Part shown: in pieces, positions 17,985-46,345 of the stretch
Layout of the letters: each line of letters opens with the position of its first letter
How positions within the stretch are numbered: position 1 is the stretch's first letter
DNA from: Hemileia vastatrix
Taxonomy: Eukaryota > Basidiomycota > Pucciniomycetes > Pucciniales > Zaghouaniaceae
Assembly (NCBI GenBank): GCA_030280995.1
Contig: JASXTE010000010.1
Coordinates: 27,272,823-27,336,822, forward strand
Reading direction: 5' to 3'
Length of the DNA: 64,000 bases
The notes under the pieces: model-generated
Told to the model about the DNA's origin: nothing
Seen by the model: the letters and a program-made list of their open reading frames with translations, nothing else
Database searches by the model: none
Made by a program: the position numbers and the translations under genes

Positions 17985-18004
17985 CTCCCTCACTTTAAAA
18001 AAAC

Positions 18005-22600: not shown

Positions 22601-22749
22601 TGACCATTACATGATTTTTTTCTAGTAGCAAAAGATTTTACAGACTCATTGTCAGTTTGTTTAATGGCCGAAATATGGGGAAGAAAAGAGCTTCTCTGTT
22701 CAGGTTCCTTTCCCTTATTTTTATGCAGCTTATTAGCAGCACCCCATTT

Positions 22750-23170: not shown

Positions 23171-23174
23171 ATGT

Positions 23175-24316: not shown

Positions 24317-24330
24317 TCCTCCCTCCAATC
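24317..24330 (-). other. Polypurine tract, element B
   Basis: Plus-strand TCCTCCCTCC directly abuts the LTR. On the minus strand this is GGAGGGAGGA, the expected primer for plus-strand DNA synthesis. It fixes the boundary between the LTR and the region carrying the antisense gene, and so places that gene inside the element. Confidence 0.8.
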
Positions 24331-24439
24331 GAGAATGTCCCCATTCTTAAAACTTTGCATAAGTGGTTGAACACAATATTCATCTTTAACCTTCAACCAC
24401 CATCTTCTTTAATCAACTATAAAATTCATCTTCATCAAT

Positions 24440-25131
24440 ATGTCTTCCAAAGAACTTGTCGCTCCATGTGAACTCTGCGCTCGATACCAGGTACCTTGTT
24501 TAATGTCCAACCCTAATCTTCCTGGCAGAACAGCTTGCGACTTATGCCGTGTGAAAAAAGTCAAATGCAACCGACCAATAGTTCCTTCTAAAACAAACGT
24601 ATATTTAGGACCAGCAGCTCTCCCTGATCCCTCAACTTCTAAAAAGCGATCCAAAATTCCTGTCTTCTTAAAACGAATAAGATCAAAAACAGCTTCAAAA
24701 GTTCAATCTTCATCAACGGATCCCGGCCTAATTTTGCCTTCACAAGATCCTAATCCTATAACGCCAGTACCCCCAACTAACTTTGCTGAGACTATGTTTC
24801 CTGGCTCTAAATGTAAGACCCTATTTATCTTACTAAAAAAACTTTTAATCAAAATTGACTAAACCTATGACTTAATAACATATTTGAACTTCTAGCTGTC
24901 GAAATAACCAACACTGATGATGTTGGTAGAGTGAAGACGGACTATATCAATCATTACCCAAATTTTCATCACTATCTTTTTCTTGACTTTACTAATGAGT
25001 TGAAACGAAAAATGCTGGCCTATTTTCAAGAAACTCCAGCTAATAACCATGAAGACCTCATGAAAAGAAGAATTTTAATGCAAAGCTTTGATAATGATGT
25101 TGAACAATTTCAAAGAAATTATCTTTTCTAA
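24440..25131 (+). CDS. Zn2Cys6-like protein gene, two exons, antisense within B
   Basis: Exons 24440-24812 and 24896-25131, with an 83-nt intron (GTAAGA...TTCTAG, phase 1), give 202 residues. Six cysteines, C10-X2-C13-X6-C20-X12-C33-X2-C36-X6-C43, match the Zn2Cys6 spacing, with a basic run RVKKVKCNR in the second half as in DNA-binding clusters. A Ser/Pro-rich linker leads to a helical C-terminus (LKRKMLAYFQETP). The start is 124 bp from the LTR, so an antisense LTR promoter is possible. The copy in E (42330-43020) keeps both exon lengths while the intron differs by one base. Role unknown: either a regulator of the element or a captured host gene. Confidence 0.8.
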
Positions 25132-25718
25132 CAGTATAACTTGATAAAATTTTGTTTTTGCTTGGTCTTCTTAAACTTTCAACATAAATGATGTTTTCTT
25201 TCTTCTCTGGGTTGATATAACATAAAATATAATAAATCTTGTGATGATTCCACTACTGAGAGCAAGGTTTGAATCCCTTCAGACTCCCATATACCAGTCT
25301 TCCTTCTTGTCACAGCATTGAGAGAGTGGATCTTCCTATGAGCCGAATACTCCTGATTCCAACCTCATAGGGCCCCCCACTGAGCCGAATTCTATGATTC
25401 CAATCTCGCCATAAGGTCCTCCAAGCTTCACACCAAAAAAAATGGCCTAACTATGAGGCACTAAAAAAAATCATTCCCTAAAATCCAACTACCATCCTAA
25501 CTTCTGATTCCTTCATCACAATTTTCAAACTTTGCTATACAGCAAACCCATAAAATACTTTTGCCAGGCTTCCAATAATAATATTAACTTTAGACCATGT
25601 TAAAGCGCCACAAATTTCACCTAATTAACCATTATGCTTTCCATAGCATCATCACCACCTAAAATTTTAACCTCCTAAAGCTTATCAGCACCCAATTCCA
25701 GAAATAATTGAATAACCA
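25132..25718. other. Non-coding part of element B 3' region
   Basis: No ORF of note. It contains a short repeated motif, GAGCCGAAT...GATTCCAA, at about 25340 and 25383. The same stretch is present almost unchanged in E (43021-43603). Confidence 0.7.
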
Positions 25719-26941
25719 GTTTAGAGTCTTAGTGGACAGTGATAAATTAAAAGATTGAATTGAGTTATCCAAACAAGATTGACATTCCAATTTAAAGTCT
25801 TGGTAGACCAAACATATAATCGATTGCCAGTTTATGGTCTTGGTGGACCAAAGATCGTTTAAGTGCATAAATATCTTGATATATTCCTAAGTAAGGCCTA
25901 GGCTTGACCAAAGATTGAATAAATTTGATAATCCAGTTTAATGTCATAGTGGACCAAACATTTGATCGACAAGTAATCCAGTATAGGGCCATAGTGGTCC
26001 AATGAATGTTGAATTATCCTGCAGATATTAATTTTCCAGTTTAAAGTCATAGTGGACTAAACAATGAATGAACTACCAGTTTAAAGTCATGGTGGACCAA
26101 ACATTTAATCGATAAGAAATCCAGTTTAAGGTCATGGTGGACCCAACAGCTTGATAACAGTCCAGTTTAAGGTCTTGGTGGACCTAACATTTGATTTATA
26201 AGAAAAAATCCGTCTCCAAAAATATCCATAAATCTTGAACATCCTTGAAATTCAGTTTAAAGTCTTGAAGGACTAACAGCTCCAATATAAAATATTTAAT
26301 GACAGTCTTGAAAATTAGCCAGTTTAAAGTCTTGGAGGACTAACAGCTCCAAAATTCGTATATAAAAAAAACCTTAAAGAACGTCTTGAACAGTAGCCAG
26401 TTTAAAGTCTTGGAGGACTAACAGATCCAAAATTCGTATAAAAAAACATAAAGAATGTTTTGAACAGTAGCCAGTTTAAAGTCTTGGAGGACTAACAGCT
26501 CCAATATAAAATCTTTAATGACAGTCTTGAAAATTAGCCAGTTTTAAGTCTTGGAGGACTAACAGATCCAAAATACGTGTAAAAAAAACCTTAAAGAACG
26601 TCTTGAACAGTAGCCAGTTTAAAGTCTTTGAGGACTAACAGCTCCAAAATTCGTATAAAAAACCTTAAAGAACGTTATGAACAGTAGCCAGTTTAAAGTC
26701 TTGGAGGACTAACAGCTCCAAAATATGTATAAAAAAACTTTAAAGAACGTCTTGAACAGTAGCCAGTTTAAAGTCTTGGAGGACTAACAGATCCAAAATA
26801 CGTATATAAAAAAACTTTAAAGAACGTCTTGAACAGTAGCCAGTTTAAAGTCTAGGAGGACTAACAGATCCAAAGTACGTATAAAATACCTTAAAGAACG
26901 TCTTGAAGAGTGGCCAGTTTAAAGTCTTGGAGGACTAACAG
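25719..26941 (+). repeat. Array of about 19 covarying hairpin repeats, element B
   Basis: Each unit reads CCAGTTTAA, a 4-nt arm, a 6-nt loop and the complementary arm. Arms seen are AGTC/GACT and GGTC/GACC, for example AGTC-TTGGAG-GACT and GGTC-ATGGTG-GACC. The first nine units match the nine in E in order. The last ten (about 26252-26941) form a tighter tandem array with spacing near 70-77 bp, linked by motifs such as AACAGCTCCAAAATTCGTAT. That array lies where E has its second Zn-cluster gene. Confidence 0.88.
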
Positions 26942-28077
26942 ATATCTTGAAGTAAAATCCCATTGGTATTGAGTTCTCCTAGACCCTGTTTCCTGTCTAA
27001 ACTAAATGAATAAAACTAAAAAGAATGAAAACTAAAAAAATAAAACTAAGAAATATAATAATGATTTTGATTTAATTAATAAATTTTAATTTTAATTTTA
27101 ATTTTTTTTTTTTATTATTATTATTTTTTTTTTTTTTTTATTTATTTTATTTTTATTTTATTTTTATTTTATTTTATTTTATTTTATTTTATTTTTTTTT
27201 TTATTTTTATTTTTTTTATTTTTATTTTTTTTTTTTTTTATTTTATTTTTTTTTTTATTTTTTTTATTTTTTTTAAATTTAAAATAAAAGATTTAGAAAA
27301 GATAGTTTTGAAATAAAAGTTAAAATTTAATTTTAAAGAAAGATAAATGAATGTGAAAAGAAAGATAAAAAAAAGTACTAAAAAAATTTTTTTAAATAAA
27401 ATTTTAAAAGATGCCCCCCGGCCATTTGATGAGCCGTACCCTCGACATCATACCCACATCCAAGTGCAACTTGATGTGGTTACACAATTTTGAGAAATTG
27501 AAAAGAAAAGAAAATAAATGAAAGTTTTTAGAAGATAATTTTTATAATGATGATCACTGGGTGGGCTCCCTCCAATTTATAAAAATGATTAGAGACCACC
27601 AGTGAGCATCACCTTTACATTAATTCATAATATATATTAAAGAAAAGAAATCACAATCTAACATAAAAAATCAAAAACAAAATAAAAAAAATCTTGAATC
27701 CGGCGTTGAGAGCGGTGTCTCTTGATTTGTTCCAGTTTATAGTCTTAGTGGACTTCCTAAAATTAAAAGACAAAGACAGGATTCAACTAGAAACAGGGAA
27801 AATTTTGGAAACGAACATTATGGGGTAATTGTGTATAGAGCAGCCAGCCCATCAATTACCCCCACACTTGCCAATATTAAATTAAGAAGGTTCCCCTGTG
27901 AACACTTCTTCCAATAAATTTTAAAAATTTTCCAACACTATCTTCACCCATATTTTAAGAATTTTAAGTTTTCGAAAATTTCAAAGAAGGTCCTCTTGCA
28001 TTTCGTTAAGTTTCATCACAGTTTCGTTGTCCATATACAGTGTAACGATAGTAAAGTATTTTGATAAAAAAAAAGAA
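26942..28077. other. AT-rich, low-complexity non-coding stretch, element B
   Basis: Includes a long T/A run of TTTTA type (about 27080-27290), a conserved block also found in E (27410-27980 versus 45460-46060), and one isolated hairpin unit near 27735 (AGTC-TTAGTG-GACT). No coding region is supported. Confidence 0.7.
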
Positions 28078-28292
28078 GATAGTTTATCCTCATTGCGGAG
28101 GTATCCATAAAATTTCGTAGATATCATAGTTTATCCTCATTTCGGAGGTATAAATTTAATAAAAGTCATTAAAATTGTAGTTTATCCTCATTTCGGAGTT
28201 GATAAAATTTAAGAAATTTCATAGTTTATCCTCATTGCGGAGGTATCCATAAAGTTTCATTGATATCATAGTTTATCCTCATTGCGGAGGTT
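28078..28292 (-). repeat. Five CCTC-type hairpin repeats at the end of element B pol
   Basis: Units AGTTTATCCTC-(6 nt)-GAGG near 28080, 28129, 28181, 28225 and 28270. The last supplies the final codons of pol (LRNEDKL and the stop), so the pol terminus is made of a repeat unit. E has five equivalents at 46134-46345. Confidence 0.87.
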
Positions 28293-31200
28293 GACTTCGG
28301 CACTCCTGGTGCCTCTAGGATAGAACCGTTTCACTTGATCGGCCGCTACCCTCTTCTTCAATACTACTCCATCCAACTCTTCTAGCACATATGAACCGCC
28401 GGAAACTTGCTCCTTGATTTTATACGGTCCATTCCACCTATCTGCAAACATTTTTCCCCACTGACTTTCCAAACTCCTATTATACACCAGGACCATATCT
28501 CCTGGGTTCAAAGGTTTCCTTAATCGATGTGCCAACCGCTCATCCCAATATCTAACTGATTGATTTCGGATCTTCATCATCCGCGAATATGCCTTTTCTA
28601 AATATTCTTCTTTCTTTTCTAGCTGCATCATTCTTGCACACAATAATTCTTCAGTAGTTTTGACCGTGTCCCAGTCAACTCCAAGATATGATTCAGCTTC
28701 TAAATCAACCGGTAAAACTGCTTTCTGTCCAAAAACAAGTTCATAAGGTGAAAATCCGGTCGTCCTTTTGGCAGTGATTCGATCAGCAAATAAAACTAAA
28801 GGTAAATAGTGCCTCCACTTTTCGGCACTTGTCCCACAGATTTTAACTAAAGCATCCTTAATAACTTGATGCCCTCTTTCAACCATGCCTTCAGCTTCAG
28901 GATAATATGGGTTTGCTACCCTAACCTTTGATCCAACTTTCAATACGGCCTCTTTAAACTCTGTCCCAAATTCAGGACCTCCATCTACCGTCACCAACTT
29001 CATCACCCCATACCTATATACCCAATTATTCAAAAAAAATTCTGCCACATTTTTGGCAGTTAAATTAATAAGAGGGGCTGCCTCTACCCAACCAGATAAA
29101 TCATCTCTGGCCACAATTAAATATTTATACCGTCCCTCTTTTATATGAACGGCATCTAAACTAACTCTCCCAAAGAGCGTATATTCACCGGTCGCGCGTC
29201 CAGGTTCTTTTGGCCTTAAATAGCTTTGTCTTTGACATTCTTCGCATGACTGAACCCACTGTTTAACAGCCATCTTCATGCCAGGCCACCAAAATCGATC
29301 AGAAATTCTTCTAAACGTTTCTCCAACGCCTCTATGCCCGAGATCTTCATGCAGTGATTTCAAAACTAATTCTTGCCCCTTCTGTTGAGTTATAACTACT
29401 TGAGGATTTGGATACCTCCTCCTCATTAAACGTCGACCAGATAGGTAAAACGTAGATGACTTCCTCTTGATAGCCACCCATTCATCGTCTTCACAATCTT
29501 CTGGCCTCTCTAAAGTCAACAAATATTTGACTAACAAAAAATAAAAACCAGTCTGACCCCAGACTTCATCTTGAAAATCGATTAATATAACATCAATAGG
29601 GACTTCTCTATCACCAATATCACCTGCACATGAATGAGCCAATAATCGTTGACCCCTAAATAAATTTTTAATCAAGCTATGTCGACGTTTTTCTTCTGAA
29701 CCTTTGGATCCTTCGAAAACTGTATTTGAAAATACCTCTTTCTCTTTATCCACCTTTTTATTTAAATTCTCTAATTCTCCAACATATACACCATTCCTTA
29801 ATTTACTACTATCCCACACTACCAATCCATTTTCCTCTACATACACCACATCTTCTTCTACCTCCTCTCTGCCGAATTTATCTACACCTTTTCCAACACC
29901 TTTATTAACATAAAAACTATTTTCCAGTTTATCCTCTTGGTGGAGGTCATCATCATCATAATCTAAACACAATAGTCCTGCCAGTTTAACCTCATGGGGG
30001 AGGTATGGAAAGTCTTCAGCTCCTTTAGTGCTGGCTTTGATAATAGGTATATCTTCATCGAACTCTTCTGAGTCTGAATCTTCTTCAGTGGGTGGTCTCC
30101 TTGATAAACCATCTGGCATAGTAAAAGTTTTGCCAGGCTTATGAACTAAATCAAACGAAAAATGTTGAATAAAAGCTACCCATCTCGTCATGGGTGCGTT
30201 CGGTAAACTTGGGGAATTAATCATCTGGATTAACGATTTTGCATCCACTTGCAACTCAAAATGTTGCCCCCACAAAATATGCTGAAGTTTCTTCAGTATT
30301 TTTGCCACACCACATAATTCCAATTTTGGTTGAGAATATCTTGATTCGACCTCAGTAAATACTACAGATTCATACCTAACTGGCCTGATGTAACCAGCTT
30401 TATCCATCTGAGACAGAGCCGCCCCAGCTGCAACCTGACTTGAATCTACTGCTAAATAAATTCTACCAGCATCTTTTCCATAATCCAACTTGTGCAGGAC
30501 TAAATCCTTCCCCACAACCTCCTTCAACTTCACAAACGCCTTCTCACACTCTTCATCCCACTCCCAGTCTGCATCCTTTCTCGTTAACCGTCTCAATGGA
30601 GCTGCCAATGAAGAAAAGTCCTTGATAAACATTCTAACATATACGCAAACGCCTAAAAACCCTCTGACTTTGGTCGTATTCTTGGGTCTTGGCCAGGACT
30701 GAATTTTGTTAACTTTCTTCTTGGACATAATCCTACCCTCTCTACATACCACATGGCCTAACATTTCTAAAGCTGGCACACAACATGAAAATTTTGAACC
30801 TGAAATAGTTAAACCAGCCTCTTCAATTCGAAACAAGATTCTTTCTAAAGTAATTGCAAACTCCCAAATGAATTTGCGTATCCCGGGATTCTCTTCCAAC
30901 ACCTGGTTATCATAGTCGGTTGTTGGTCCCTTAATTCCTCCATCATCTATAAAGATTCCAGCATATTGTGGAATTTCATCTTGAAGGATCCAAGCCATCT
31001 GAGCTTGATAAACTGCAACCGAATTTGTTGCTCCTTGAGGTAATCTTGTTAACTGTAAACGTCCTAGTGGTGTATCGAATGTAGTGAGAGGCCTTGAGTC
31101 CGGATGTAACTCTCTCTCATCATATCCACCCATAATATCTCCCAAACCATAACACACTCTCCCTGCAAATGCTTCAACAAACTCCTCAGCACTAGGCGGT

Positions 31201-31634
31201 ATCCCAGCATCCTTTATTGTAACCCTATTTAATTCCCTAAGATCATGAACAACTCTAAGCTTGCCATTCGGTTTCTTGATACAAAATACAGGACTAGAAT
31301 AACTTGATGTTGATTGCTCATACAGTCCAGTGCGTATCCGTTCTCTGACAACTTCAATATAGGCTTCTTTTAATGCAGCCGGAATAGGAATCGGTTTCTG
31401 CTGCCACGGTTCATGACATACCACAGGAATCTTGTAAGGCTCCCCATAGGAATGCTTCAACACACCCCTCTCCTCTTCTACAAAAGCAATGGCCTTCTCT
31501 CGCTTGACCATCACATCCAACAACAACTTCTTCTCTTCACCAGACAACCAACCATCAGGTCCAAAATTAACAACACCCAGTCTCTCAAAAGTGATTCTTG
31601 ACGTCTCAGAAAATTCAGGCGGATTCTTTACCAA
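28266..31634 (-). CDS. Element B pol: RT, RNase H, integrase
   Basis: Uninterrupted for 1122 codons. RT lies in about residues 90-330 (KPNGKLRVVHDLRELN, LGDIMGGYDERELHPD, LTRLPQGATNS, GIFIDDGG). RNase H follows (YLAVDSSQVAAGAALSQ, PKLELCGVAKIL, LQVDAKSLIQMI, HKPGKTFTMPDGLSRR). Next is an acidic linker with hairpin-coded peptides (PHEVKLAG, HQEDKLEN). The integrase zinc region (HEDLGHRG...CEEC) and core (LDAVHI, TVDGGPEFG, EGMVERGHQ) keep D, D and E. The only break is upstream: TAA at 31641-31643 where E has GAA, so translation from the spacer would stop there. No chromodomain at the C-terminus. Confidence 0.92.
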   Translation of the reverse strand: MVKNPPEFSETSRITFERLGVVNFGPDGWLSGEEKKLLLDVMVKREKAIAFVEEERGVLKHSYGEPYKIPVVCHEPWQQKPIPIPAALKEAYIEVVRERIRTGLYEQSTSSYSSPVFCIKKPNGKLRVVHDLRELNRVTIKDAGIPPSAEEFVEAFAGRVCYGLGDIMGGYDERELHPDSRPLTTFDTPLGRLQLTRLPQGATNSVAVYQAQMAWILQDEIPQYAGIFIDDGGIKGPTTDYDNQVLEENPGIRKFIWEFAITLERILFRIEEAGLTISGSKFSCCVPALEMLGHVVCREGRIMSKKKVNKIQSWPRPKNTTKVRGFLGVCVYVRMFIKDFSSLAAPLRRLTRKDADWEWDEECEKAFVKLKEVVGKDLVLHKLDYGKDAGRIYLAVDSSQVAAGAALSQMDKAGYIRPVRYESVVFTEVESRYSQPKLELCGVAKILKKLQHILWGQHFELQVDAKSLIQMINSPSLPNAPMTRWVAFIQHFSFDLVHKPGKTFTMPDGLSRRPPTEEDSDSEEFDEDIPIIKASTKGAEDFPYLPHEVKLAGLLCLDYDDDDLHQEDKLENSFYVNKGVGKGVDKFGREEVEEDVVYVEENGLVVWDSSKLRNGVYVGELENLNKKVDKEKEVFSNTVFEGSKGSEEKRRHSLIKNLFRGQRLLAHSCAGDIGDREVPIDVILIDFQDEVWGQTGFYFLLVKYLLTLERPEDCEDDEWVAIKRKSSTFYLSGRRLMRRRYPNPQVVITQQKGQELVLKSLHEDLGHRGVGETFRRISDRFWWPGMKMAVKQWVQSCEECQRQSYLRPKEPGRATGEYTLFGRVSLDAVHIKEGRYKYLIVARDDLSGWVEAAPLINLTAKNVAEFFLNNWVYRYGVMKLVTVDGGPEFGTEFKEAVLKVGSKVRVANPYYPEAEGMVERGHQVIKDALVKICGTSAEKWRHYLPLVLFADRITAKRTTGFSPYELVFGQKAVLPVDLEAESYLGVDWDTVKTTEELLCARMMQLEKKEEYLEKAYSRMMKIRNQSVRYWDERLAHRLRKPLNPGDMVLVYNRSLESQWGKMFADRWNGPYKIKEQVSGGSYVLEELDGVVLKKRVAADQVKRFYPRGTRSAEVNLRNEDKL

Positions 31635-31640
31635 GGGACT

Positions 31641-32576
31641 TTAATAAGGATCTCTTGATAACCTTGGTCTTCTCAAGGGTGGATTTAATTCTGCAGGTAG
31701 CGGTTCATTAATAGGTCGAACTTTATTTGCTACTTTCTTATATTTGGCTGCGTCCACATCTAAATAAACTTGAGGTAAATCATTTACTTTTGTATCGCCA
31801 TTAAAACTTTCATCAAATGAATCTTCTTCATCGCCAGAATCAGAATAAGAAAAATTAGAAAAATATTTTATTTCATTTTTAAATTTTACCCTTTTCTCCT
31901 TTCCCTCGTCTAATTTATAAACAGATTTTCCAACACCTTTGCTTCCCTTATCCAACAGTAAATCACCTGTAAAGAAAGTTGGCAGTTTAACCTCTTGCTG
32001 GAGGACCGGAATTGAATTTTCACAAAAATTATTTTTTTGGGTTTTAATTATACTGAGATTTTTTATCGGATTTTGATGTGATATTTGCAGTTTACCCTCT
32101 TGCTGGAGGTCCAAAATAGAAGGAGATAATTGCAGTTTAACCTCTTGCTGGAGGTCCGGAAACGAATTTTCACAAAAATTATTTTTTTGTGTTTTAATTA
32201 TACCGAGATTTTTTATTGAGTTTTGATGAGTTAATTTTTGCAGTTTACCCTCTTGCTGGAGGTCATAAAACATACCCTTCCAATTTTTATCCAACCTAAT
32301 TTGGCCCATTTTGCCTTTTTTACCATTTTTAAATTTAATAGAAAAACCGGGTAAATCCAATAAACATATAGAAAAGTCCAAAACGTATTTGCACTCCAAA
32401 GTAATATTAACAGAAAATAATTGAGAATCCACTTGAATTATCTCCAAGTGAGCTGACCTATTGCAATCCGGGATCTCATCCTGAGGAGAGATTACAACAT
32501 TTGAGCGATCAGCCCCTGCTACCCCAAAAAATGTGGGCAACCATAATAATTTGAATCCTGAATAAATTGAAGACAT
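31641..32576 (-). CDS. Element B pol N-terminal spacer, 311 codons
   Basis: The same frame as pol, ended by a single TAA. It starts at an ATG at 32576 and includes TFFGVAGADRS, which corresponds to the residues right after the frameshift site in A and E. A segment of about 60 residues is shared closely with E (HLEIIQVDSQLFSVNITLEC). Four hairpin units follow, translated as DLQQEGKLQ, DLQQEVKLQ, DLQQEGKLQ and LQQEVKLP. The end enters the RT region (NPPLRRPRLSRDPY). Function of the spacer unknown. Confidence 0.75.
   Translation of the reverse strand: MSSIYSGFKLLWLPTFFGVAGADRSNVVISPQDEIPDCNRSAHLEIIQVDSQLFSVNITLECKYVLDFSICLLDLPGFSIKFKNGKKGKMGQIRLDKNWKGMFYDLQQEGKLQKLTHQNSIKNLGIIKTQKNNFCENSFPDLQQEVKLQLSPSILDLQQEGKLQISHQNPIKNLSIIKTQKNNFCENSIPVLQQEVKLPTFFTGDLLLDKGSKGVGKSVYKLDEGKEKRVKFKNEIKYFSNFSYSDSGDEEDSFDESFNGDTKVNDLPQVYLDVDAAKYKKVANKVRPINEPLPAELNPPLRRPRLSRDPY
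31981..32263 (-). repeat. Four in-frame CCTC hairpins in element B spacer
   Basis: Units at 31981-32004, 32088-32110, 32132-32154 and 32241-32263 read CAGTTTAACCTC or CAGTTTACCCTC, then TTGCTG, then GAGG. All are in one orientation and one reading phase, so each adds the same peptide. Confidence 0.85.
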
Positions 32577-32632
32577 AACGAAAAAAAAAAATTTCAGCCG
32601 AGTTTAGGTAGTTTATCCTCATTTCGGAGGAA

Positions 32633-33838
32633 TTAAATTCTTGATATCCCCTGGAGATAATCCTTAATTTTTCCCCAAGGGCTTATCCACCGATTCCATA
32701 AAACCCAAAAATAAACCCCCATAATTTGTCCTACCATTGGACATAAAAAATAAACAACCCTTTTCCAAAATATGAGTGCATCCAATTTATGCACTCTATT
32801 ATCAAATTCCACTACACTCTTTATTAGTGCAGGGAAAACCATATCCTCCATAAAAATCTCTTCCTGAGATTGAAACAAATCCACCATACATATACCAGAT
32901 TCATAAACCATATCCACATCTGAATTGCAGACAGTCTCCGCTTTTGAAGACAAAACCTGAGGTAAATATTCCTCTAAATCAAATTCCAAATTATCCAAAA
33001 CAAAATTATCCCCAACATCCAAATTTTCTTCATCAGTGACAATAATATCTTCATCTTCAGAAACCTCTTCTTTCCTAACAGAAGAGTCAACAAAAATAAT
33101 ATCTTCAGGCTGGACAAAATCTTCAGGAATGGCTGAATCCGAAATTTCATCAGTAACTAGTTCTTTTAAACCATCCTCTTCTATCTCTTGAGCGACCTCA
33201 GTGTCTTCTCCAGAGTCCAAATCAACAGAGTTATGAGTATCCAGATGTTCCAAAATAACCTTCTTTAGCACCTCCATACCAGGAATCCTAGTTTCTCCAT
33301 CTGGGCAATCCTTCATTAAATTCGCATTAATAAGCACCATCAAAACATCTTTCTTAACCTTTTCCCCCATAGCATCCCAAAAAATATACTTTGATGCATT
33401 ATCATGAAATAAAATTTCATACTCCAACAAATAATCAAGAACCACCTGAAATTCAACCATAAACTGATGATACTGATGCAGAGATGTTACACCACCTTTT
33501 GATTCCCATTTCCTAGCTATATCCTTTAGATCCTCCAATGAATAAACTTTTGGCCACCTTTTTCCCATTTCCATCTTGAGCTTTCTCCAATCTTGATCTT
33601 TATAACCATCCATAGAAATAACCTCCTTTTCCACCTCTCTGTCCAAAATAAAGAACCTAATCTGCTTCACCATATCCAAAGGTAAAGCACCATCAATTGC
33701 AGCTGCAGTTTCATACCTATGTAAAAATCCTTCTAAATCATCTCCAGAAAACTTGGGCCCAACCCAAGATACAATCCTTACTGATGCCCTAACAGGTACA
33801 CCAGCAGCCAACACAGCAGTTCCACTAGTAGAAGACAT
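32633..33838 (-). CDS. Element B Gag-like protein without zinc knuckle or protease
   Basis: The ORF is open from 33865, but the start is placed at 33838 (MSSTSGTAV) because E begins MSSSAVASG at the matching point. Residues 1-190 align with the Gag N-terminus of A and E (VRIVSWVGPKFSGDDLEGF, LDMVKQIRFFILDREVEKEV). The remainder is strongly acidic (SEDEDIIVTDEENLD) and ends in a hydrophobic, Trp-rich segment (FWKRVVYFLCPMVGQIMGVY) that could span a membrane. B has TGG where A and E have an in-frame TGA. The stop is followed by a hairpin unit (32608-32632) and then the pol spacer. Confidence 0.82.
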   Translation of the reverse strand: MSSTSGTAVLAAGVPVRASVRIVSWVGPKFSGDDLEGFLHRYETAAAIDGALPLDMVKQIRFFILDREVEKEVISMDGYKDQDWRKLKMEMGKRWPKVYSLEDLKDIARKWESKGGVTSLHQYHQFMVEFQVVLDYLLEYEILFHDNASKYIFWDAMGEKVKKDVLMVLINANLMKDCPDGETRIPGMEVLKKVILEHLDTHNSVDLDSGEDTEVAQEIEEDGLKELVTDEISDSAIPEDFVQPEDIIFVDSSVRKEEVSEDEDIIVTDEENLDVGDNFVLDNLEFDLEEYLPQVLSSKAETVCNSDVDMVYESGICMVDLFQSQEEIFMEDMVFPALIKSVVEFDNRVHKLDALIFWKRVVYFLCPMVGQIMGVYFWVLWNRWISPWGKIKDYLQGISRI

Positions 33839-33988
33839 CCCAAAACATAAGAAAAGCGTTAACAACCGTTAAATTAACAAGCCTCTTGCAGGCCAATAAC
33901 AAAATCCAATTAGAGTTCCAGAGAATAAGCCTCTTGCAGGCTAAGAAAGTCCTAGATCCAAGTAAGTCTTTAAAGAAAGCTAGAGAAA

Positions 33989-34010
33989 TCGAACCCCACG
34001 TTGGGCGCTA
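33989..34010 (-). other. Primer-binding site, tRNA-Lys type, element B
   Basis: Plus-strand TCGAACCCCACGTTGGGCGCTA matches the tRNA-Lys 3' end, including part of the T arm, except that the final CCA reads CTA, a mutation since insertion. Two bases separate it from the LTR. Confidence 0.8.
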
Positions 34011-34012
34011 AC

Positions 34013-35088
34013 TATGGTAAGGTAAACTCTTACAGTCGCCTTGCTGTAAGCAGAATCCGGAGGAGATATATGGATTTAGCTGAAAACCCCGTCCTTCCAA
34101 TAAAAATAACAAAGTAGGTGTTCTAAATCACTAAGCTAACCAATCTACTTGGATCTGATTGATAAAAATAATGAAACTCTAAAATAATTAACGCTTATTG
34201 AGATTTAAAGAAAGTGGCTGTTGATAAAGAAATACTGATAACAACAATTAAGGTGTACCAGTGAAAGATCTGAAAAGATTGACTTTTATGTTTTTATAAT
34301 AATTTGAATTTTTATGAGACAGAAATAATCAAGTCCCAGTGATGAATACCTTTCTAAAGATACCCTATATGAAGTGTGATTTAAATTGTTGAATTGTATT
34401 TCTAAAATGTTATGTAAAAATAATAAATGTTATAAGGGTATTACAAATTTATTTAATTTGTTGAGTAATAAAAAATGAGACTGTGGTGGTTAATGATTAA
34501 GCTGTATGATGTGTCCCCTCTCAATTTCGAGTTTGAGAAGCGCTTAAGTATTCCTAGTCACGTGCCTAAGTTTTCCCCTCCAGAGCTCTTCCAGAGTCAA
34601 TCCGGAGTCCGTCCGGACTTCCGGACTCAATTTAGAACCTTAAAACTATAATAAAAAATCTAGAAAAATTACACATAATAGAGCTACTTCCCTTTTACAT
34701 ACCAAACTAATTTTCGTAGTCTGCGCAGCTCTAATTACCCCGTGAAAATTCATCAAAGTTAAGTAATTTTTGAAAACGTAAATATTTCTATAAAACTTTA
34801 AAATTCATTTAAAAATATAAGAAAAATAGTAAAAATTCTGGGAAAATTTCCCAAGGTTCTTGAGTGACTCGACTTAATACTTATAAATTTTTCAGACCGT
34901 AAAAATAAGTTTTCTCCGTAAAATAAATTGTTTTCGTGTAGGCATTCGCTCGTGACCAATTTCTTCATATTTAAAACTCAAATAAATTAAATAAAACCCT
35001 TTTTATAAAAAATAATAACGCCAATCTTGCTCGCCGTAATAACTCCATTTACATATTTAGGTGCCGTACTTAACTTTAGGCTACCACA
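34013..35088 (-). repeat. Element B 5' LTR (1076 bp)
   Basis: Plus-strand TATGGTAAGG to GGCTACCACA, followed by the ATGT duplication. It carries only the short form of the CGG/CCG cluster near 34602-34626. Confidence 0.93.
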
Positions 35089-35092
35089 ATGT

Positions 35093-35414
35093 ATTAACAC
35101 ATCTCTTAAATTTATGTCTTTTACAACATTAAAATCAAGGGTATCTTTCAATATTTCTTCAGAAGTTTTCTCAATTAAAGTATAGACTTCAGGGGAAACA
35201 GAATCATTTTTAATTTCAAGAGAATGATTAATTAAAGAAGTGGAAGTCAAATGTAAAGGTTCATCAAATTATAATTTTATAATTACATCATAGGGGCTAC
35301 TCATTAAAGGAAGTTGTCTTTTTAAGGGTTTAACTGTTCTTTCACCAGGATCCCCAATATTACTTGAAGAAGATTTGATATTATACATACCAACATGTTT
35401 ATAAAACACATTAC
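35093..35414 (-). pseudogene. Element C coiled-coil ORF, N-terminal part
   Basis: The piece of C's coiled-coil ORF on the far side of B. Residues such as LTSTSLINHSLEIKNDSVSP match D. The frame has a stop upstream near 35270. Confidence 0.78.
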
Positions 35415-38958: not shown

Positions 38959-40249
38959 TGTCAGCCAGGCTATACCAGGAGCCCAGTAAATGATATTTTG
39001 ATTTATTTGACCTGAAAGAGGGCGTAAGAATTGCATTTGATGTATATAAATTAATATTTTATTGCATAATAAAATTATATAAGTATCTAATTAATTATAA
39101 GTGTTATATTAATTCTATTGTTATATTAGTTCTATTGTTATATAAATTTTTTATAAATTTAAATTAAGCATAATATATTTTATATTTTGCAAATAATGGT
39201 TCCTTTTTTTGTATTTAATAATTATAAATTAATAATTTATTGATTACAAACATATATTATAATTATATGTGTACAATTGACTTATAATGTAATTAAATTA
39301 ATTAATTAAATTTATATATTAAATAAAACTTTTCATATACTATAAAATAATAATATTGGGCGCTTTTTCGACCCATAATTGTGTCAGAAAAATTATTAAA
39401 TAAATTATAACACTTATTTAATAATATGGTATTAAAATTCTCACTTTAAATTAGAAATATCATTAAATTAATTATATCTTTCATTTAAACTAATTATTAA
39501 ATTAATTACATAGTTAAAAAAATTAATTAAAATTGCTTTACAATGGATTGAATTGATTACATGGATTTTTGTGCGAAAATAAATTTAATTTTTTTAATTA
39601 AACCCTTTACCTCCTACTGTAATGTCTGTTTTGGATTCCTTTTCTCAAAGCTCTTATGTTTCAAGCTTACTTAGTTACTACTATTTTAATTAACTGGTTT
39701 GGGAACTTATAGTGGGAAAATTAGTTACTTATTCTTGGGTTTAGTTAATTGTTTCATGTTTTTCTGTTAATATCTATGTTTCATTTCTATTCTTTTATAT
39801 TCATGTTTTAGATTATTACTATTTTGTATATACTGATTTGTGGCGCTTCAGAGGTCCCCTGGTCTATAAAAGGGCCTTGGGTGATCCCCTTTAGCCCATC
39901 ACTTATTACACTCAACTTTTTTAACATATTTTTAAAATATAACACATTTACTTTATTTTTATTAGTATTATAATTCTACTTTAAAGGTAAATAATTATTC
40001 TAAGGTTGCAATAAGTTTCTTAATAATAGTAATTGTTTGTCGTGCATTGATTATAGTACTTACTTAAATAAATATATTATAAATAAATAAAACCTTACTG
40101 TTGTGTCAATCTTATAAATCATTGTTGCAACTTTTTTAATTAACTCAATTATTTTATTAATTTCATTTCCCTAAAACTTTTCCCATTTTTCTCTTCCTCA
40201 TCTCTCTTTTCTCCACCTTCTTCTCCCTCTTCTAGACAACCGGCTCACA
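38959..40249 (+). repeat. Solo chromovirus LTR 1
   Basis: Begins TGTCAGCCAGG and ends CCGGCTCACA, 1291 bp, opposite in orientation to C and D, with a perfect GTCAC duplication (38954-38958 and 40250-40254). With no internal element, this is the expected product of recombination between two LTRs. Confidence 0.92.
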
Positions 40250-40254
40250 GTCAC

Positions 40255-40595
40255 ACTTAGTATAAAACAGTTGATTTAAAATGTTGTTTTAACAGAAATT
40301 TGAATTTCTTAATAAAGGAATTTGAATTTTTTTTTGATTTTATTATATTTTTAATACATTTTTTATTCCCTTCTCAACTGTATTATTGATCACGGTGTTA
40401 GGGAGTAAAAATTTATGGGACATTTCTTTTTATTAATTATTAAATTTACTTAATGTAGTTAGCTAGTTAATTGTAAGTAATACATAAGTAAGCAATAAAT
40501 ATTAAACTATTAATAAGGATTTATAAGGTGTGTCTTCATCTCAGTAAGATAATTAATTATTTTACTGGATAAGTCTAGTATCCTGGCTGAAAAAA
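40255..40595 (-). repeat. Older chromovirus LTR, right part
   Basis: Continuation of the LTR interrupted by solo LTR 1. It ends with TTTACTGGATAAG...TCCTGGCTGAAA, a diverged version of the C terminus at 37973-38003. Confidence 0.6.
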
Positions 40596-41099
40596 ATACA
40601 ACATCTATATAAATATATATATATGTATATAAAGATATATCTATTTATTTAAAAAATACTTCAACATATTTTAGGCCTAGCTTGTTTCCAATACAAACCT
40701 ATAAATTATTGGGAAGTACAAAAGATTGCAACATTTATTTGTTTAACACCATCTTTTGTTTCTCACCAATCATTATAAGGTAACACCACGTTTTTTTATA
40801 AGTCTCTTTACACTCATTATATTTATTTTAGTAATATTTGAAATTAATCATCTTTTATTGCTCACCAATCATTATAAGCCCTGATATCCATTGCCCCTTT
40901 GCCCACTCTGCTAAACCATCCAATTCTGGCCTTTGTCCCAGCATTATCATTTAATTTGGGCCATAGTTTCCCTGCATCATTCATGACTGACCATCGCCTC
41001 AGCACCATCCTTAAGACCAGCCAATAGTCCCAGAACCATCACATTAAGTCAGACTTTTTCCTCTCCACCATCGTCAAGACCAGCCATTGTCTCTGCACC
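40596..41099. repeat. Degenerate minisatellite flanking element E, left side
   Basis: From about 40880, units of roughly 30-40 bp with the theme ACCAGCCATTGTCCCAGCACCA repeat imperfectly, and they continue beyond E to about 54560. Also a short duplication, CACCAATCATTATAAG, near 40760 and 40863. No gene. Confidence 0.6.
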
Positions 41100-41103
41100 A
41101 CGT

Positions 41104-42206
41104 TATGGTAAGGTAAACTCTTACAGTCGCCTTGCTGTAAGAAGAATCCAGAGATATGTGGATTTAGCTGAAAACCCCGTCCTTCCAATAAAAATAACAA
41201 AATGGGAATTCTAAATCACTAAGCTAACCAGTCTACTTGGATCTGATTGATAAAAATAATGAAACTCTAAAATATTTAACGCTTATTGATATTTAAATAA
41301 AAGTGGCTGTTGAGAAAAGAAATACTGATAACAACAATTAAGGTGTACCAGTGAAAGATCTGAAAAGATTGACTTTTAGGTTTTTATAATAATTTGAATT
41401 TTTATGAGACAGCAATAATCAAGTCCCAGTGATGAATACCTTTCTAAAGATACCCTGTATGAATTGTGATTTAAATTGTTGAGTAGTATTTCTAAAATGT
41501 TATATATAAAATATAAAGTTATAAGGGTATTACAATTTATTTAATTTGTTGAGTAATAAAAAATGAGACTGTGGTGGTCAATGATTAAGCTGTATGTTGT
41601 GTCCCCCTCAATTTCGAGTTTGAGAGGCTCTTAAGTATACCTAGTCACGTGTCTAAGTTTTCCCCTCCAGAGCTCTCCCAGAGTCAATCCGGAGCCCATA
41701 CGGAGTCCGTACGGAGTCGAAGCGGAGTCCATCCGGACTTCCGGACTCAATTAGAACCTTAAAAACTATAATAAAAAATCTAGAAAAATTACACATGATA
41801 GAGCTACTTCCCCTTTATATTCCAAACTAATTTTCGTAGTCTGCGCAGCTCTAATTACCCCGTGAAAATTCATCAAAGTTAAGTAATTTCTGAAAACGTA
41901 AATATTTCTATAAAACTTTAAAATTCATTTAAAAATATAAGAAAAATAGTAAAAATTCTGGGAAAATTTCCCAAGGTTCTTGAGTGACTCGACTTGATAC
42001 TTATAAATTCTTCAGACCGTAAAAATAAGTTTTCTCCGTAAAATAAATTGTTTTCGCGTAGGCATTTGTTTTTAATCAAATTTCTTTATATTTAAGACTC
42101 AAATAAATTTAATAAAACCCTTTTATAAAATAATAACACCAATCTTGCACGCCATAATAACTCAATTTAGGTACTTAGGTACCATACTAAACTTTAGGCT
42201 ACCACA
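41104..42206 (-). repeat. Element E 3' LTR (1103 bp)
   Basis: TATGGTAAGG to GGCTACCACA. It contains a CGG/CCG cluster at about 41689-41745. Plus-strand TCCTTCCTCC at 42207-42216 is the adjacent polypurine tract. Confidence 0.93.
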
Positions 42207-42329
42207 TCCTTCCTCCAATTGAGAATGTCCCCATTCTTAAGACTTTGCATAAGTGGCCGAACACAATATTCATCTTTAACCTTCAACCACCACCTTCTTT
42301 AATCAACTTTAAAATTCATCTTCTTCAAT

Positions 42330-43020
42330 ATGTCTTTCAAAGAACTTGTCGCTCCATGTGAACTCTGCGCTCGATACCAGGTACCTTGTTTAATGTCCAA
42401 CCCTAATCTTCCTGGCAGGACAGCTTGCGACTTATGCCGTGTAAAAAAAGTCAAATGTAACCGGCCAATAGTTCCTTCTAAAACAAACGTATATTTAGGA
42501 CCAGCAGCTCTCCCTGATCCCTCAACTTCTAAAAAACAATCAAAGATTCCTGTCTTCTTAAAACGAATAAGATCAAAAACAGCTTCAAAAGTTCAATCTT
42601 CATCAGCGGATCCCGGCCTAATTTTTCCCTCACAAGATCCTAATCCTATAACGCCAGTGCCCCCAACCAACTTTGCTGAGACTATGTTTCCTGGCTCTAA
42701 ATGTAAGACCCTATTATCTTACTACAAAAACTTTTAATCAAAATTCACTAAACCTATGACTTAATAACATATTTGAACTTCTAGCTGTCGAAATAACCAA
42801 CACTGATGATGTTGGTAGAGTGAAGACGGACTATATCAATCATTATCCAAATTTTCATCGCTATCTTTTTCTTGACTTTACTAATGAGTTGAAACGAAAA
42901 ATGCTGGCCTATTTTCAAGAAACTCCAGCTAATAACCATGAAGACCTCATGAAAAGAAGAATTTTAATGCAAAGCTTTGATAATGATGTTGAACAATTTC
43001 AAAGAAATTATCTTTTCTAA
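42330..43020 (+). CDS. Zn2Cys6-like protein gene 1, two exons, antisense within E
   Basis: Exons 42330-42702 and 42785-43020, with an 82-nt phase-1 intron (GTAAGA...TTCTAG), give 202 residues. The cysteine pattern C10-X2-C-X6-C-X12-C-X2-C-X6-C43 and the C-terminal LKRKMLAYFQETP region are the same as in B. A few residues differ from B, for example Phe for Ser at position 3 and Gln for Arg in KKQSKIP. It begins 124 bp from the LTR, pointing away from it and against pol. Its product is probably nuclear if it binds DNA; that is inference from the motif. Confidence 0.8.
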
Positions 43021-43603
43021 CAGTATAACTTGATAAAATTTTGTTTTTGCTTGGTCTTCTTTAACTTTCAACATAAATGTTGTTTTCTTTCTTCTCTGTC
43101 TTAACATAAAATAATAAATAATAAATCTTGTGATAATTCCACTACTGAGAGCAAGGTTTGAATCCCTTCAGACTCCCATATACCAGTCTTCCTTCTTGTC
43201 ACAGCATTGAGAGAGTGGATCTTCCTATGAGCCGAATACTCCTGATTCCAACCTCATAGGGCCCCCCACTGAGCCGAATTCTATGATTCCAATCTCGCCA
43301 TAAGGTCCTCCAAGCTTCACACCAAAAAAAATGGCCTAACTATGAGGCACTAAAAAAAATCATTCCCTAAAATCCAACTACCATCCTAACTTCTGATTCC
43401 TTCATCACAATTTTAAAACTTTGCTATGCAGCAAACCCATAAAATACTTTTTCCAGGCTTCCAATAATAATATTAACTTTAGACCATGTTAAAGCGCCAC
43501 AAATTTCACCTAATTAACCATTATGCTTTCCTTAGCATCATCACCACCTAAAATTTTAACCTCCTAAAGCTTATCAGCACCCAATTCCAGAAATAATTGA
43601 GTA
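43021..43603. other. Non-coding part of element E 3' region
   Basis: Same sequence as 25132-25718 of B with few changes. No coding region supported. Confidence 0.7.
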
Positions 43604-44075
43604 ACCAGTTTAGAGTCTTAGTGGACAGTGATAAATTAAAAGATTGAATTGAGTTATCCAAACAAGATTGACATTCCAGTTTTAAGTCTTGGTGGACCAA
43701 ACATATAATTGATTGCCAGTTTATGGTCTTGGTGGACCAAAGATTGTTTAGGTGCATAAATAACTTGATATATTCTTAAATAAGGCCTAGGCTTGACCAA
43801 AGATTGAATAAATTTGATAATCCAGTTTAATGTCATAGTGGACCAAACATTTGATCGACAAGTAATCCAGTATAAGGCCATAGTGGACCAATGAATGTTG
43901 AATTATCCTGCAGATATTAATTTTCCAGTTTAAAGTCATAGTGTACTAAACAATGAATGAACTACCAGTTTAAAGTCATGGTGGACCAAACATTTGATCG
44001 ATAAGAAATCCAGTTTAAGGTCATGGTGGACCCAACAGCTTGATAACAGCCCAGTTTAAGGTCTTGGTGGACCTA
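43604..44075 (+). repeat. Nine covarying hairpin repeats, element E
   Basis: Units CCAGTTTA + arm + loop + complementary arm, such as GGTC-TTGGTG-GACC and GGTC-ATGGTG-GACC. They match the first nine units of B in order and spacing. A unit near 43867 shows a partly decayed stem. The array ends just before the second Zn-cluster gene. Confidence 0.87.
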
Positions 44076-44167
44076 ACAACTTCTCTATCCTTGAACCCAG
44101 ATTTTGCCACCAGCTTTCTTCATCCTAGTTTCAAGTTTTCTTCTTCAAAAAAATATCTCCTATCAAG

Positions 44168-45181
44168 ATGAAACCTTCTGACTTCATTGCTTCAGCTGAT
44201 CAATCTTGCAAATATTGTGCTTTCACCCATAGGGAATGTATCTTCACTTTCAACTGGCAAAAGCACACTTATAACAGGGCCTGTTTATCCTGTTATGAGA
44301 AGAAAAGAAAATGTTCTGGCTTGAACTGTGGTTCTTTCCCCATTACTGCTACTAGCTTCGCCGCCTTCTGCAAACCTGCTCCTTCTTCTTCACCTTCTAC
44401 TCCACCCCCTATTCCATCAACCTCTAAAGATCCCATCCCTTTTTCTCCATCAGCCTATTTAAATCTTTCTCCATCACCTAATCCTCTGTGTCCTTCTCTC
44501 CAATCTAGACTTGCTGCTACTCCCCCAAGAACTCTTGCTGCTCTCAGGGCCATGCTTCAACCTTCTAACAATTCTTCTCCTACTTCCAACATCTTGAAGC
44601 ACAAAAGGTCCTATAATAGCCAGCAATCTTCATCTTCTCTTGTTTCATCCAAAAGGCCCAGAACATCTACTTCAAACACCAAATCCAACACCTGTCCTCC
44701 TCATCTATCAAAAATAAAAAATCCTTTTTTAAACATAAAAAATTCCACTCCATTACCAAGTAAGCCGTTTATCTATGATCATGATAGTGTTGACACAGGT
44801 TAGTTGTCTCTTTTTATTTTCTTAATCTTCAGGTTTTAATTTGCTGATATTTTAATTTGATAAGCGTCCACCGGCTCTCCAATTTCATATTCAGCTTATG
44901 AACTAACAGAACCTAATCCAAGCTTCCCTAGAGTTCCAATTCACCTAGTGTCTGAAAAGCTCTTTGCTAATTTTAATAACCTTATCGCTTATTTCCAACA
45001 ATACCCGCCCTCTGATAGATCAGAATCTTGGATGAGAGAGCAACTGTTAAGAGACCTTTTCAAAATAGCCAACTGGCTTCAACACTATCGTGACCGTGAA
45101 ATAAGATTTGAATCCCAGGAAATCGATCAAGGTCCTTATAAATTTTCTAATTTCAATTCTTCAAAAGATAACAACCCTTGA
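44168..45181 (+). CDS. Zn2Cys6-like protein gene 2, two exons, antisense within E
   Basis: Exons 44168-44798 and 44895-45181, with a 96-nt phase-1 intron (GTTAGT...TTCAG), give 305 residues. Cysteines C14-X2-C17-X6-C24-X14-C39-X2-C42-X6-C49 with the basic run YEKKRKCSG. A long Ser/Pro-rich middle (about 55-205) is followed by a helical C-terminus with NLIAYFQQYPP, which parallels MLAYFQETP of gene 1. The same architecture, intron position and phase as gene 1 show the two are paralogs. B lacks this gene and has extra hairpin repeats there. An alternative splice acceptor at TCTTCAG (44826-44832) would break the frame. Confidence 0.75.
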
Positions 45182-46133
45182 TGGTGTTCTTCCTGGTATG
45201 TAGCTTTCTTGAATAATGTTTGAAAAATAAAAATATAAACATCTAAACTACCTAAAACTAAAATGACTTTTATTTTTTTTATTTTTTTTTTTTTTAGTTA
45301 TTTTATTATTTTTTTTTACCCTTTAAAATAAAAGATTTTTTTTTAAAAAAAAAGATAGTTTTGAAATAAAAGTTAAAATTTAATTTTTAAAGAAAGATAA
45401 ACGAACGTGAAAAGAAAGATAAAAAAAGTAATAAAATTTTTTTTTTAAAATAAAATTTTAAAAGATGCCCCCCAACCATTTGATGAGCTGTACCCTCGAC
45501 ATCATACCCACATCCAAGTGCAACTTGATGTGGTTACACAATTTTGAGAAATTGAAAGGAAAAGAAAATAAATGAAAGTTTTTGGAAAATAATTTTTATA
45601 ATGATGATCACTGGGTGGGCTCCCTCCAATTCATAAAAATGATTAGAGACCACCAGTGAGCATCACCTTTACAATAATTCATAATATATATTAAAGAAAA
45701 GAAATCACAATCTAACATAAAAAAATCAAAAACAAATTAAAATAAAAAGAATCTTGAATCCGGCGTTGAGAGCGGTGTCTCTTGATTCGTTCCAGTTTAT
45801 AATCTTAGGGGACTTCCTATAATTAAAAGACAAAGCCAGGATTCAACTAGAAACAGGAAAATTTTGGAAATGAACATTATGGGGTAATTGTGTATAGATC
45901 AGCCAGCCCATCAATTACCCCCACACTTGCCAATATTAAATTAAGAAGTTTCCCCTGTGAACACTTCTTCCAATAAATTTTTAAAATTTTCCAACACTAT
46001 CTTCACCCATATTTTAAGAATTTTAAATTTCAAAAATTTCAAAGAAGATTTTCTTGCATTTTGTTAAGTTTCATCACAGTTCCGTTGCCCATATGCAGTG
46101 TAACGACAGTAAAGTATTTTGATAAAAAGAAGA
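45182..46133. other. AT-rich non-coding stretch, element E
   Basis: T-rich run (45265-45345), then a block conserved with B (27410-27980), and a single hairpin unit near 45792 with a decayed stem. No gene supported. Confidence 0.7.
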
Positions 46134-46345
46134 TAGTTTATCCTCTTTGCGGAGGTCGATAAGGTTTTTATAAACATCATAGTTTATCCTCATTGCGGAG
46201 GGATCCATAAAATTTGGTCGATATCATAGTTTATCCTCACTGCGGAGGTATCCATAAAATTTCATTGATATCATAGTTTATCCTCATTGCGGAGGTTAAT
46301 AAAATTTAATAAATGTCATAGTTTATCCTCATTGCGGAGGGAGAC
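46134..46345 (-). repeat. Five CCTC-type hairpin repeats at the end of element E pol
   Basis: AGTTTATCCTC-(6 nt)-GAGG units. The loops vary (TTTGCG, ATTGCG, ACTGCG) while the stem is constant. The last unit encodes LRNEDKL and the pol stop, as in B. Confidence 0.86.

What the first reader, a model, noticed from the sequence alone, without database searches (positions are those of the whole stretch)
24317..46315. LTR retrotransposons carrying spliced, antisense Zn2Cys6-like genes between pol and the 3' LTR
Seen: in both B and E the space between the pol stop and the polypurine tract holds plus-strand two-exon genes (24440-25131; 42330-43020; 44168-45181), opposite to gag-pol. All have CX2CX6CX12-14CX2CX6C, a Ser/Pro-rich linker, a phase-1 intron at the same place and a C-terminal AYFQ helix region. 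E's two genes are divergent paralogs that are both open. Known: antisense or extra ORFs occur at this position in some plant and fungal gypsy elements, but I know of none described as a Zn2Cys6 family. Introns on the antisense strand survive retrotransposition because they are not spliced from the genomic RNA. Inference: an element-borne transcription regulator.
Basis: partly seen in the sequence, partly recalled or inferred. Interest (0 to 1): 0.88.

Follow-up and report, generated by a model that had tools for sequence, protein, structure and literature searches.

The report
Retrotransposons with antisense zinc-cluster genes
Two related jumping elements in a probably rust-like fungal genome carry, on the strand opposite to their usual genes, predicted two-exon genes for small zinc-cluster-like proteins, which likely act as the element's own DNA-binding regulators and would be a fungal counterpart of the unexplained antisense genes of plant elements.

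Summary
Ty3/gypsy insertions B (LTRs 23175-24316, 34013-35088) and E (41104-42206, 53352-54457) have plus-strand two-exon gene models between pol and the 3' LTR, opposite to gag-pol: gene 1 in both, gene 2 in E only. Coordinates, phase-1 introns (83/82/96 nt) and C6 motifs are as stated. Between B and E, gene 1 differs by 11 synonymous and 5 nonsynonymous changes (dN/dS 0.12). First, gene 1's C6 motif is not a canonical Zn2Cys6 cluster: the half that Pfam and PPR1/GAL4 place first comes second. Second, a 26-nt palindromic motif with covarying stem pairs has 55 model hits, all on the plus strand and inside elements A, B and E; it flanks the antisense genes and is expanded where B lacks gene 2. 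Host by Pol relatives: Pucciniomycotina, species unknown. No protein relatives of either gene were found. Antisense genes at this place are known in plants (Grande, RIRE2, Retand), and Botrytis elements carry an antisense gene (brtn), so this is a new variant of a known kind. Splicing, expression and DNA binding are untested; the genome search did not complete, so copy number is unknown.

The parts
23175..24316 (-). 3' LTR of element B; element reads on the minus strand; target duplication ATGT at 23171-23174 and 35089-35092
   Evidence: Self-BLAST; termini and flanks read directly; LTR pair 9 mismatches in 1076 aligned
24317..24439 (.). Junction segment of B: complement of the purine-rich tract next to the 3' LTR and 5' flank of gene 1, with a TATAAAA string upstream of the ATG
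   Evidence: Sequence; purine tract printed; promoter role is inference
24440..25131 (+). Gene 1 of B, two exons (24440-24812, 24896-25131), 202 aa predicted
   Evidence: Pfam Zn_clus 24.0 bits; dN/dS against E 0.12
25716..26187 (+). Eight copies of the dispersed palindromic motif downstream of gene 1 in B
   Evidence: Covariance model R1 hits
26252..26943 (+). Tandem array, 74-nt period, 10 motif copies; lies where E has gene 2
   Evidence: TRF; R1 hits
28269..31640 (-). Pol frame of B with reverse transcriptase, RNase H and integrase domains, uninterrupted
   Evidence: Pfam on 28266-31634; frame
31641..32603 (-). Linker frame of B with four motif copies read in one frame (DLQQEVKL-like peptides)
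34013..35088 (-). 5' LTR of B
41104..42206 (-). 3' LTR of element E; target duplication ACGT at 41100-41103 and 54458-54461
   Evidence: LTR pair 23 mismatches in 1103 aligned
42330..43020 (+). Gene 1 of E, two exons (42330-42702, 42785-43020), 202 aa predicted
43605..44076 (+). Eight motif copies between gene 1 and gene 2 of E
44168..45181 (+). Gene 2 of E, two exons (44168-44798, 44895-45181), 305 aa predicted; no counterpart found in B
45792..46343 (+). Six motif copies around the end of pol of E
46319..52848 (-). Protease-bearing gag-side frame and pol of E; pol is broken by four in-frame stops
53352..54457 (-). 5' LTR of E

Best explanation
Two related Ty3/gypsy elements carry, between pol and the 3' LTR and on the opposite strand, predicted two-exon genes whose products likely are element-borne DNA-binding regulators built from an apparently half-swapped zinc cluster plus a predicted helical hairpin that would serve for dimer formation. 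Proposed working: an antisense promoter at the LTR/internal junction makes the plus-strand mRNA (inferred). The genomic RNA is the other strand, so the antisense intron is not removed from it and survives each round of retrotransposition (follows from the mechanism). The protein enters the nucleus and binds the element's own dispersed palindromes (NNTC-N6-GANN beside AGTTTA), which fill the space around the antisense genes (inferred; only the motif itself is shown). It thereby keeps the element open against host silencing, as VANC proteins do for VANDAL transposons (inferred by analogy; HBZ-like repression of sense transcription is the mirror option). Shown: open gene models, purifying selection on gene 1, order of the cysteine halves in gene 1, the motif and its covariation.
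For: Gene models and motif. dN/dS of gene 1 0.12, codon-position differences 1/3/12, P 0.0026 with a transition-aware null. No indels in either exon of gene 1 between B and E. Zn_clus Pfam match of gene 1, 24.0 bits against cut-off 21, on the basic half that PPR1 and GAL4 have first (its DNA-contact role is recalled). C-terminal exon of gene 1 predicted as a helical hairpin with pLDDT about 90 over residues 31-70 of the model; gene 2 aligns to it in sequence. Motif: 55 hits, all plus strand, all in the internal parts of A, B and E, none in LTRs; both-sides-changed cells 24 against 8.6 in shuffles, 0/500. Between B and E pol, CpG-type transitions hit 29 of 174 CpG-context sites against 13 of 240 GpC-context control sites, as expected if the host methylates CG, which is reported for TEs of a Puccinia (abstract of PMC8444563). 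Motif arrays differ between related copies, as reported for VANC targets (section 9 of PMC5735166).
Against: No expression, splicing, localisation or binding data. Only two copies of gene 1 and one of gene 2 could be compared. Pol is also constrained (0.27), and over exon 1 one minus-strand frame shows a similar 9:4 synonymous excess, though it holds a stop. Exon 2 by itself has one change of each kind. The covariation rests mainly on two motif classes (CCTC/GAGG and RGTC/GACY), so independent double changes may be only two or three, and a +1 slide of the partner still gives 17 such cells. No motif lies in the LTRs or in the 123-nt 5' flank of gene 1, where a promoter-binding factor would be expected. 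The fixed orientation of AGTTTA suits an RNA signal as well as a DNA site. The CpG excess is clear in pol only: against the GpC control it is 5/52 vs 2/50 and 5/53 vs 3/50 in the LTR pairs, 6/52 vs 9/116 over gene 1 and its flank, 9/61 vs 9/56 between the left LTRs, so the case for host methylation, and with it for anti-silencing, is thin. The zinc-cluster model has low confidence (pLDDT 55) and only chance-level fold matches. Pfam counted two matching stretches in whole gene 1 at E up to 10; the place of the second was not printed.
Confidence: 0.37

Rival explanations
1. The protein is an RNA-binding accessory factor: it binds the repeated hairpin in the unspliced genomic RNA and helps its export, packaging or dimerisation.
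For: The 55 motif hits lie inside the internal region, none in LTRs, all in one orientation, several inside coding linkers; stem pairs covary. Cer1's CERV protein is required for export of genomic RNA (title and abstract start in search listings).
Against: The closest domain is a DNA-binding one. The stem has only four pairs. Nothing links the hairpin to the proteins except position.
Confidence: 0.18
2. The antisense transcript, not the protein, is what matters: it pairs with genomic RNA and feeds or titrates RNA silencing.
For: Antisense TE transcripts are common in another biotrophic fungus, 823 lncRNAs (abstract of PMC10648671); the plant review names dsRNA silencing as an option (passages of PMC7264820).
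Against: Synonymous excess, open frames in both copies of gene 1 and the retained cysteine motif point to a protein.
Confidence: 0.14
3. The genes are passengers: host or foreign genes captured once, amplified with the element and of no use to it.
For: Gene 2 is present in E and not found in B; the stretch differs between the two copies.
Against: Purifying selection between B and E on gene 1. No relative was found in 5.8 billion proteins with either gene, although that search misses relatives without shared 5-residue words.
Confidence: 0.19
4. The two-exon models are chance open frames.
For: Ser/Pro-rich linkers; no homologs found.
Against: Openness above Markov nulls, Pfam match of gene 1, codon-position pattern.
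Confidence: 0.03

Closest known systems
Retand/Grande/RIRE2 antisense accessory ORFs of plant Ty3/gypsy elements (TRP28; PMC11963269 parts 1 and 3 of 5 read plus a term search; PMC7264820 passages read)
   Same: Same place (pol to 3' LTR), opposite strand, predicted DNA binding, tandem arrays in the same region; regulatory role suggested by the authors
   Different: Host is fungal; no TRP28 domain, a zinc-cluster-like motif instead; a predicted phase-1 intron (the words intron and zinc do not occur in PMC11963269); motif spread into pol linkers as well
brtn of Boty-like elements of Botrytis cinerea (Zhao et al. 2011; only the title in reference lists and a methods passage of PMC8365987 seen)
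   Same: Additional antisense gene in a fungal LTR element
   Different: Its place and domain content were not seen here; no relation could be tested
VANC anti-silencing proteins of Arabidopsis VANDAL transposons (PMC5735166, abstract and section 9 read)
   Same: Element-encoded protein; target motifs in tandem arrays that differ between related copies
   Different: Not an LTR retrotransposon (recalled), other protein domains; here binding and loss of methylation are untested
HBZ of HTLV-1 (named in PMC11963269, rest recalled)
   Same: Antisense gene near the 3' LTR that encodes a nuclear regulator
   Different: bZIP protein of a retrovirus (recalled); no sequence relation claimed
Zn2Cys6 fungal transcription factors (GAL4, PPR1; PF00172)
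   Same: Six cysteines in CX2CX6C halves; one half matches the half that comes first in GAL4 and PPR1
   Different: Order of halves swapped, loop of 12-14 residues, predicted helical hairpin at the C-terminus

Membership tests
Zn2Cys6 (PF00172) | Score above Pfam's cut-off | tested here: inconclusive
   Gene 1 24.0 bits against 21; gene 2 8.4
Zn2Cys6 (PF00172) | Six cysteines CX2CX6C, loop, CX2CX6C | tested here: met
   loop 12 in gene 1, 14 in gene 2, against 6 in PPR1
Zn2Cys6 (PF00172) | Basic half first, second half after it | tested here: not met
   In both genes profile positions 1-15 match the second triad. Gene 1's first triad fits PPR1's second half (score 16, P 0.0036) and none of three first halves (P 0.27); for gene 2 the same trend is not significant
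Zn2Cys6 (PF00172) | Zinc and DNA binding | not testable with these tools
   AF2 model of the N-terminus has pLDDT 55; 7 fold matches, all at E 6 or worse
Antisense accessory ORF between pol and 3' LTR | Position and strand | tested here: met
Antisense accessory ORF between pol and 3' LTR | Present in many copies of the family | tested here: inconclusive
   Gene 1 in 2 of 2 copies whose region lies in the window, gene 2 in 1 of 2; element A's region is cut off by the window edge; genome search unanswered in 18 tries
Retand lineage (TRP28) | TRP28 domain PF04195 | tested here: not met
   Pfam scan at E up to 10 listed only Zn_clus for both proteins
Retand lineage (TRP28) | Reverse transcriptase in the plant Retand clade | not tested
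   No tree made; the named hits at the top of the Pol list are Puccinia, Phenoliferia and Austropuccinia
VANC-type anti-silencing system | Motif arrays that vary between related copies | tested here: met
   74-nt array with 10 motifs in B, absent from E; that the motifs are targets is inference
VANC-type anti-silencing system | VANC domains DUF1985 and DUF287 | tested here: not met
   Pfam scan listed only Zn_clus
VANC-type anti-silencing system | Loss of DNA methylation at targets | not testable with these tools

The most novel reading that the evidence does not exclude
A fungal retrotransposon family has built its own sequence-specific control system: antisense genes for a circularly permuted Zn2Cys6 protein and, spread through the same element, a covarying palindromic motif in two classes that the paralogous proteins read, together keeping the element open against host silencing and turning over as a matched set (gene 2 in E, expanded motif array in B).
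Probability: 0.12. Interest if true: 0.88.

Novelty: new variant of a known kind. Interest (0 to 1): 0.6.

Why it matters
The role of antisense genes between pol and the 3' LTR is still called unknown in the plant literature (PMC7264820 passages, PMC11963269). A fungal case with a recognisable DNA-binding-type motif, selection on the protein and a candidate target motif inside the same element would make that question directly testable. A natural half-swapped zinc cluster would also tell how tolerant this fungal DNA-binding fold is to permutation.

Tried and rejected
Protein relatives of gene 1 and gene 2: none at E up to 1 (24 and 1310 candidates scored). Loci by Pol or gene 1 in viral contigs and by an 11-row Pol alignment in genome contigs: stretches matched but no relative was confirmed. 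The motif as a DNA pattern: 16 single matches in viral contigs, about what chance gives for such a pattern in so large a collection by my own rough estimate, not read further; 0 in genome contigs. Rfam at gathering scores: no match. tRNA: none. Fold search of the C-terminal hairpin: 56 matches at E up to 10, none under 0.001. A protein-level trace of the motif in Pol relatives: L..E.KL occurs 15 times in the 120 listed of 357 hits, against 5.9 (maximum 10) in shuffles, but 10 of the 15 are a shared LPEE-type stretch; only P0005 (twice) and P0017 (once) have it between protease and reverse transcriptase, so this is a lead only. A weak tblastn match of gene 1 at 25322-25582 and 43211-43471 (E 0.001-0.002, composition correction off) was not pursued. 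Literature: ten answered searches; none of the papers listed deals, by title or abstract start, with antisense Zn2Cys6 genes in retrotransposons, but most lists were cut (for example 20 of 301, 12 of 502, 12 of 303). Zn2Cys6 with 'circularly permuted' gave 0 papers. Only open-licence PMC text is covered.

Considered and rejected: canonical Zn2Cys6 membership (order of halves); sense-strand coding as the sole cause of conservation (stops in each minus frame over exon 1).
Full report
What is there. The window holds nested LTR elements. Two related Ty3/gypsy insertions on the minus strand, B and E, have LTRs at 23175-24316/34013-35088 and 41104-42206/53352-54457. They are flanked by 4-bp duplications ATGT and ACGT, and the segment next to each 5' LTR matches the 3' end of a lysine tRNA (recalled, read). 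B sits inside a copy (17850-23173) of a chromodomain-type element, which resumes at 35089 (Chromo found in the sister copy 9856-12222). LTR pairs differ at 9 of 1076 (B) and 23 of 1103 (E) aligned sites, so both insertions are fairly young. B's pol is uninterrupted; E's is broken by four in-frame stops. A third relative, A, runs off the left edge of the window, so its pol-to-3'-LTR part cannot be seen.

The antisense genes. Between pol and the 3' LTR, on the plus strand, B has gene 1 and E has genes 1 and 2, each of two predicted exons with a phase-1 intron. The frames are longer than Markov nulls give. Gene 1 differs between B and E by 16 substitutions, 12 at third codon positions, 11 synonymous; dN 0.011, dS 0.087, ratio 0.12, against 0.27 for pol. 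Because 14 of the 16 are transitions I used a transition-aware null: P 0.0026. Exon 2 alone has one change of each kind, so it carries no such test by itself. Over exon 1 one minus-strand frame shows 9 synonymous to 4 nonsynonymous codon differences, but it holds a stop in both copies. Genes 1 and 2 resemble each other in the C-terminal exon (P 0.0015), each with an AYFQ stretch after an intron at a matching place; the N-terminal resemblance does not exceed what the shared cysteines give (P 0.20).

The zinc cluster. Pfam finds Zn_clus in gene 1 above cut-off and in gene 2 far below it. When the halves are scanned apart, only the second cysteine triad matches in either gene, and to profile positions 1-15; the scan of whole gene 1 counted two stretches at E up to 10, the second of unprinted place. 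PPR1 and GAL4 align to gene 1 in the same way. In gene 1 the first triad resembles PPR1's second half (score 16, P 0.0036), not any first half (P 0.27); gene 2 shows the same trend without significance. The comparison set was three yeast proteins. I read this as a half-swapped, possibly circularly permuted, cluster. A model of this part from three sequences is weak (pLDDT 55), with only chance-level fold matches. The C-terminal exon of gene 1 is predicted as a helical hairpin (mean pLDDT 76.9, about 90 in the core), also without a clear fold match.

The motif. Repeats near the genes share CCAGTTTAN-NNTC-N6-GANN. Of 64 plus-strand AGTTTA sites 42 are followed by a full four-pair stem; of 33 minus-strand sites none is. 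From 51 copies in A, B and E, 36 distinct sequences were aligned; two further pattern matches outside these elements were left out. The stem is paired in 95.8% of cells, with 24 both-sides-changed cells against 8.6 in shuffles (0/500); slid controls give 1 to 17. A covariance model built on them finds 55 hits at E up to 1 in the window, all on the plus strand: 4 in A, 31 in B, 20 in E, none in LTRs or elsewhere. The model was built from most of these, so the count is not independent evidence; the strand pattern is. Copies lie between genes 1 and 2 of E (8), downstream of gene 1 in B (8), in B's 74-nt array (10), around the end of pol, inside pol, and in the linker frame before reverse transcriptase. 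The 16 coding copies printed all read in one frame as L..E.KL peptides such as DLQQEVKL. Coding and non-coding copies differ by double changes that keep the stem, which speaks for a nucleic-acid-level function; but two sequence classes carry most of this, so the number of independent events is small.

Host. The named proteins at the top of the Pol list are from Puccinia striiformis, P. coronata, Phenoliferia and Austropuccinia, besides two labelled as a Sphingobacteriaceae metagenome bin (120 of 357 listed); hence Pucciniomycotina. The species is not known. CpG-type transitions between B and E pol hit 29 of 174 CpG-context sites, against 13 of 240 at GpC; in the LTR pairs, the gene 1 region and between the left LTRs the excess over GpC is small or absent. 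CG methylation of young TEs is reported for Puccinia graminis (abstract).

How it likely works. I commit to an element-borne DNA-binding regulator made from the antisense strand, with the palindromes as the most economical candidate sites and anti-silencing as the most likely direction, by analogy with VANC. Binding, direction, promoter, splicing and nuclear entry are all inferred. The absence of motifs from the LTRs and the fixed orientation are real points against promoter binding and leave room for an RNA-level role.

What is known. Antisense accessory genes at this place, with predicted DNA binding, and tandem arrays characterise plant Retand elements; an antisense gene occurs in Boty-like elements of Botrytis (title only). 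Not met in what I saw of that literature are the zinc-cluster-like, half-swapped motif, the predicted intron, two paralogs in one element, and the dispersed covarying motif. I therefore file it as a new variant of a known kind.

Limits. The genome search did not complete (18 calls), so copy number and wider distribution are unknown, and no RNA data were at hand; all selection evidence rests on two copies.

Noticed in passing
55 sites in 1354-3523, 25716-32633 and 43605-50312: 26-nt plus-strand palindromic motif with covarying stem, found only in three related gypsy elements of the window and present in coding and non-coding parts
   Followed up: yes
32544-33611 against 50591-52954: B and E are collinear from pol up to here but differ on the gag side: E has a protease-bearing frame partly alike to A (70% over 713 nt), B shorter frames without any Pfam domain, suggesting recombination or a non-autonomous variant
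   Followed up: partly
3213-3347 and 3659-3794 (element A): Second repeated segment (136 nt, 93% alike) in the frame before reverse transcriptase, near SSQLCTARVSST peptides; Pol relatives P0005 and P0017 show loosely similar repeated peptides by eye
   Followed up: no
pol of B and E (28266-31634, 46316-49674): Differences between the copies are denser at CpG (29 of 174) than at GpC (13 of 240) sites, a possible trace of cytosine methylation; not clear in the LTRs
   Followed up: partly
23171-35092: B is inserted in a chromodomain-type gypsy copy (17850-23173, resuming at 35089) with a 4-bp duplication
   Followed up: yes
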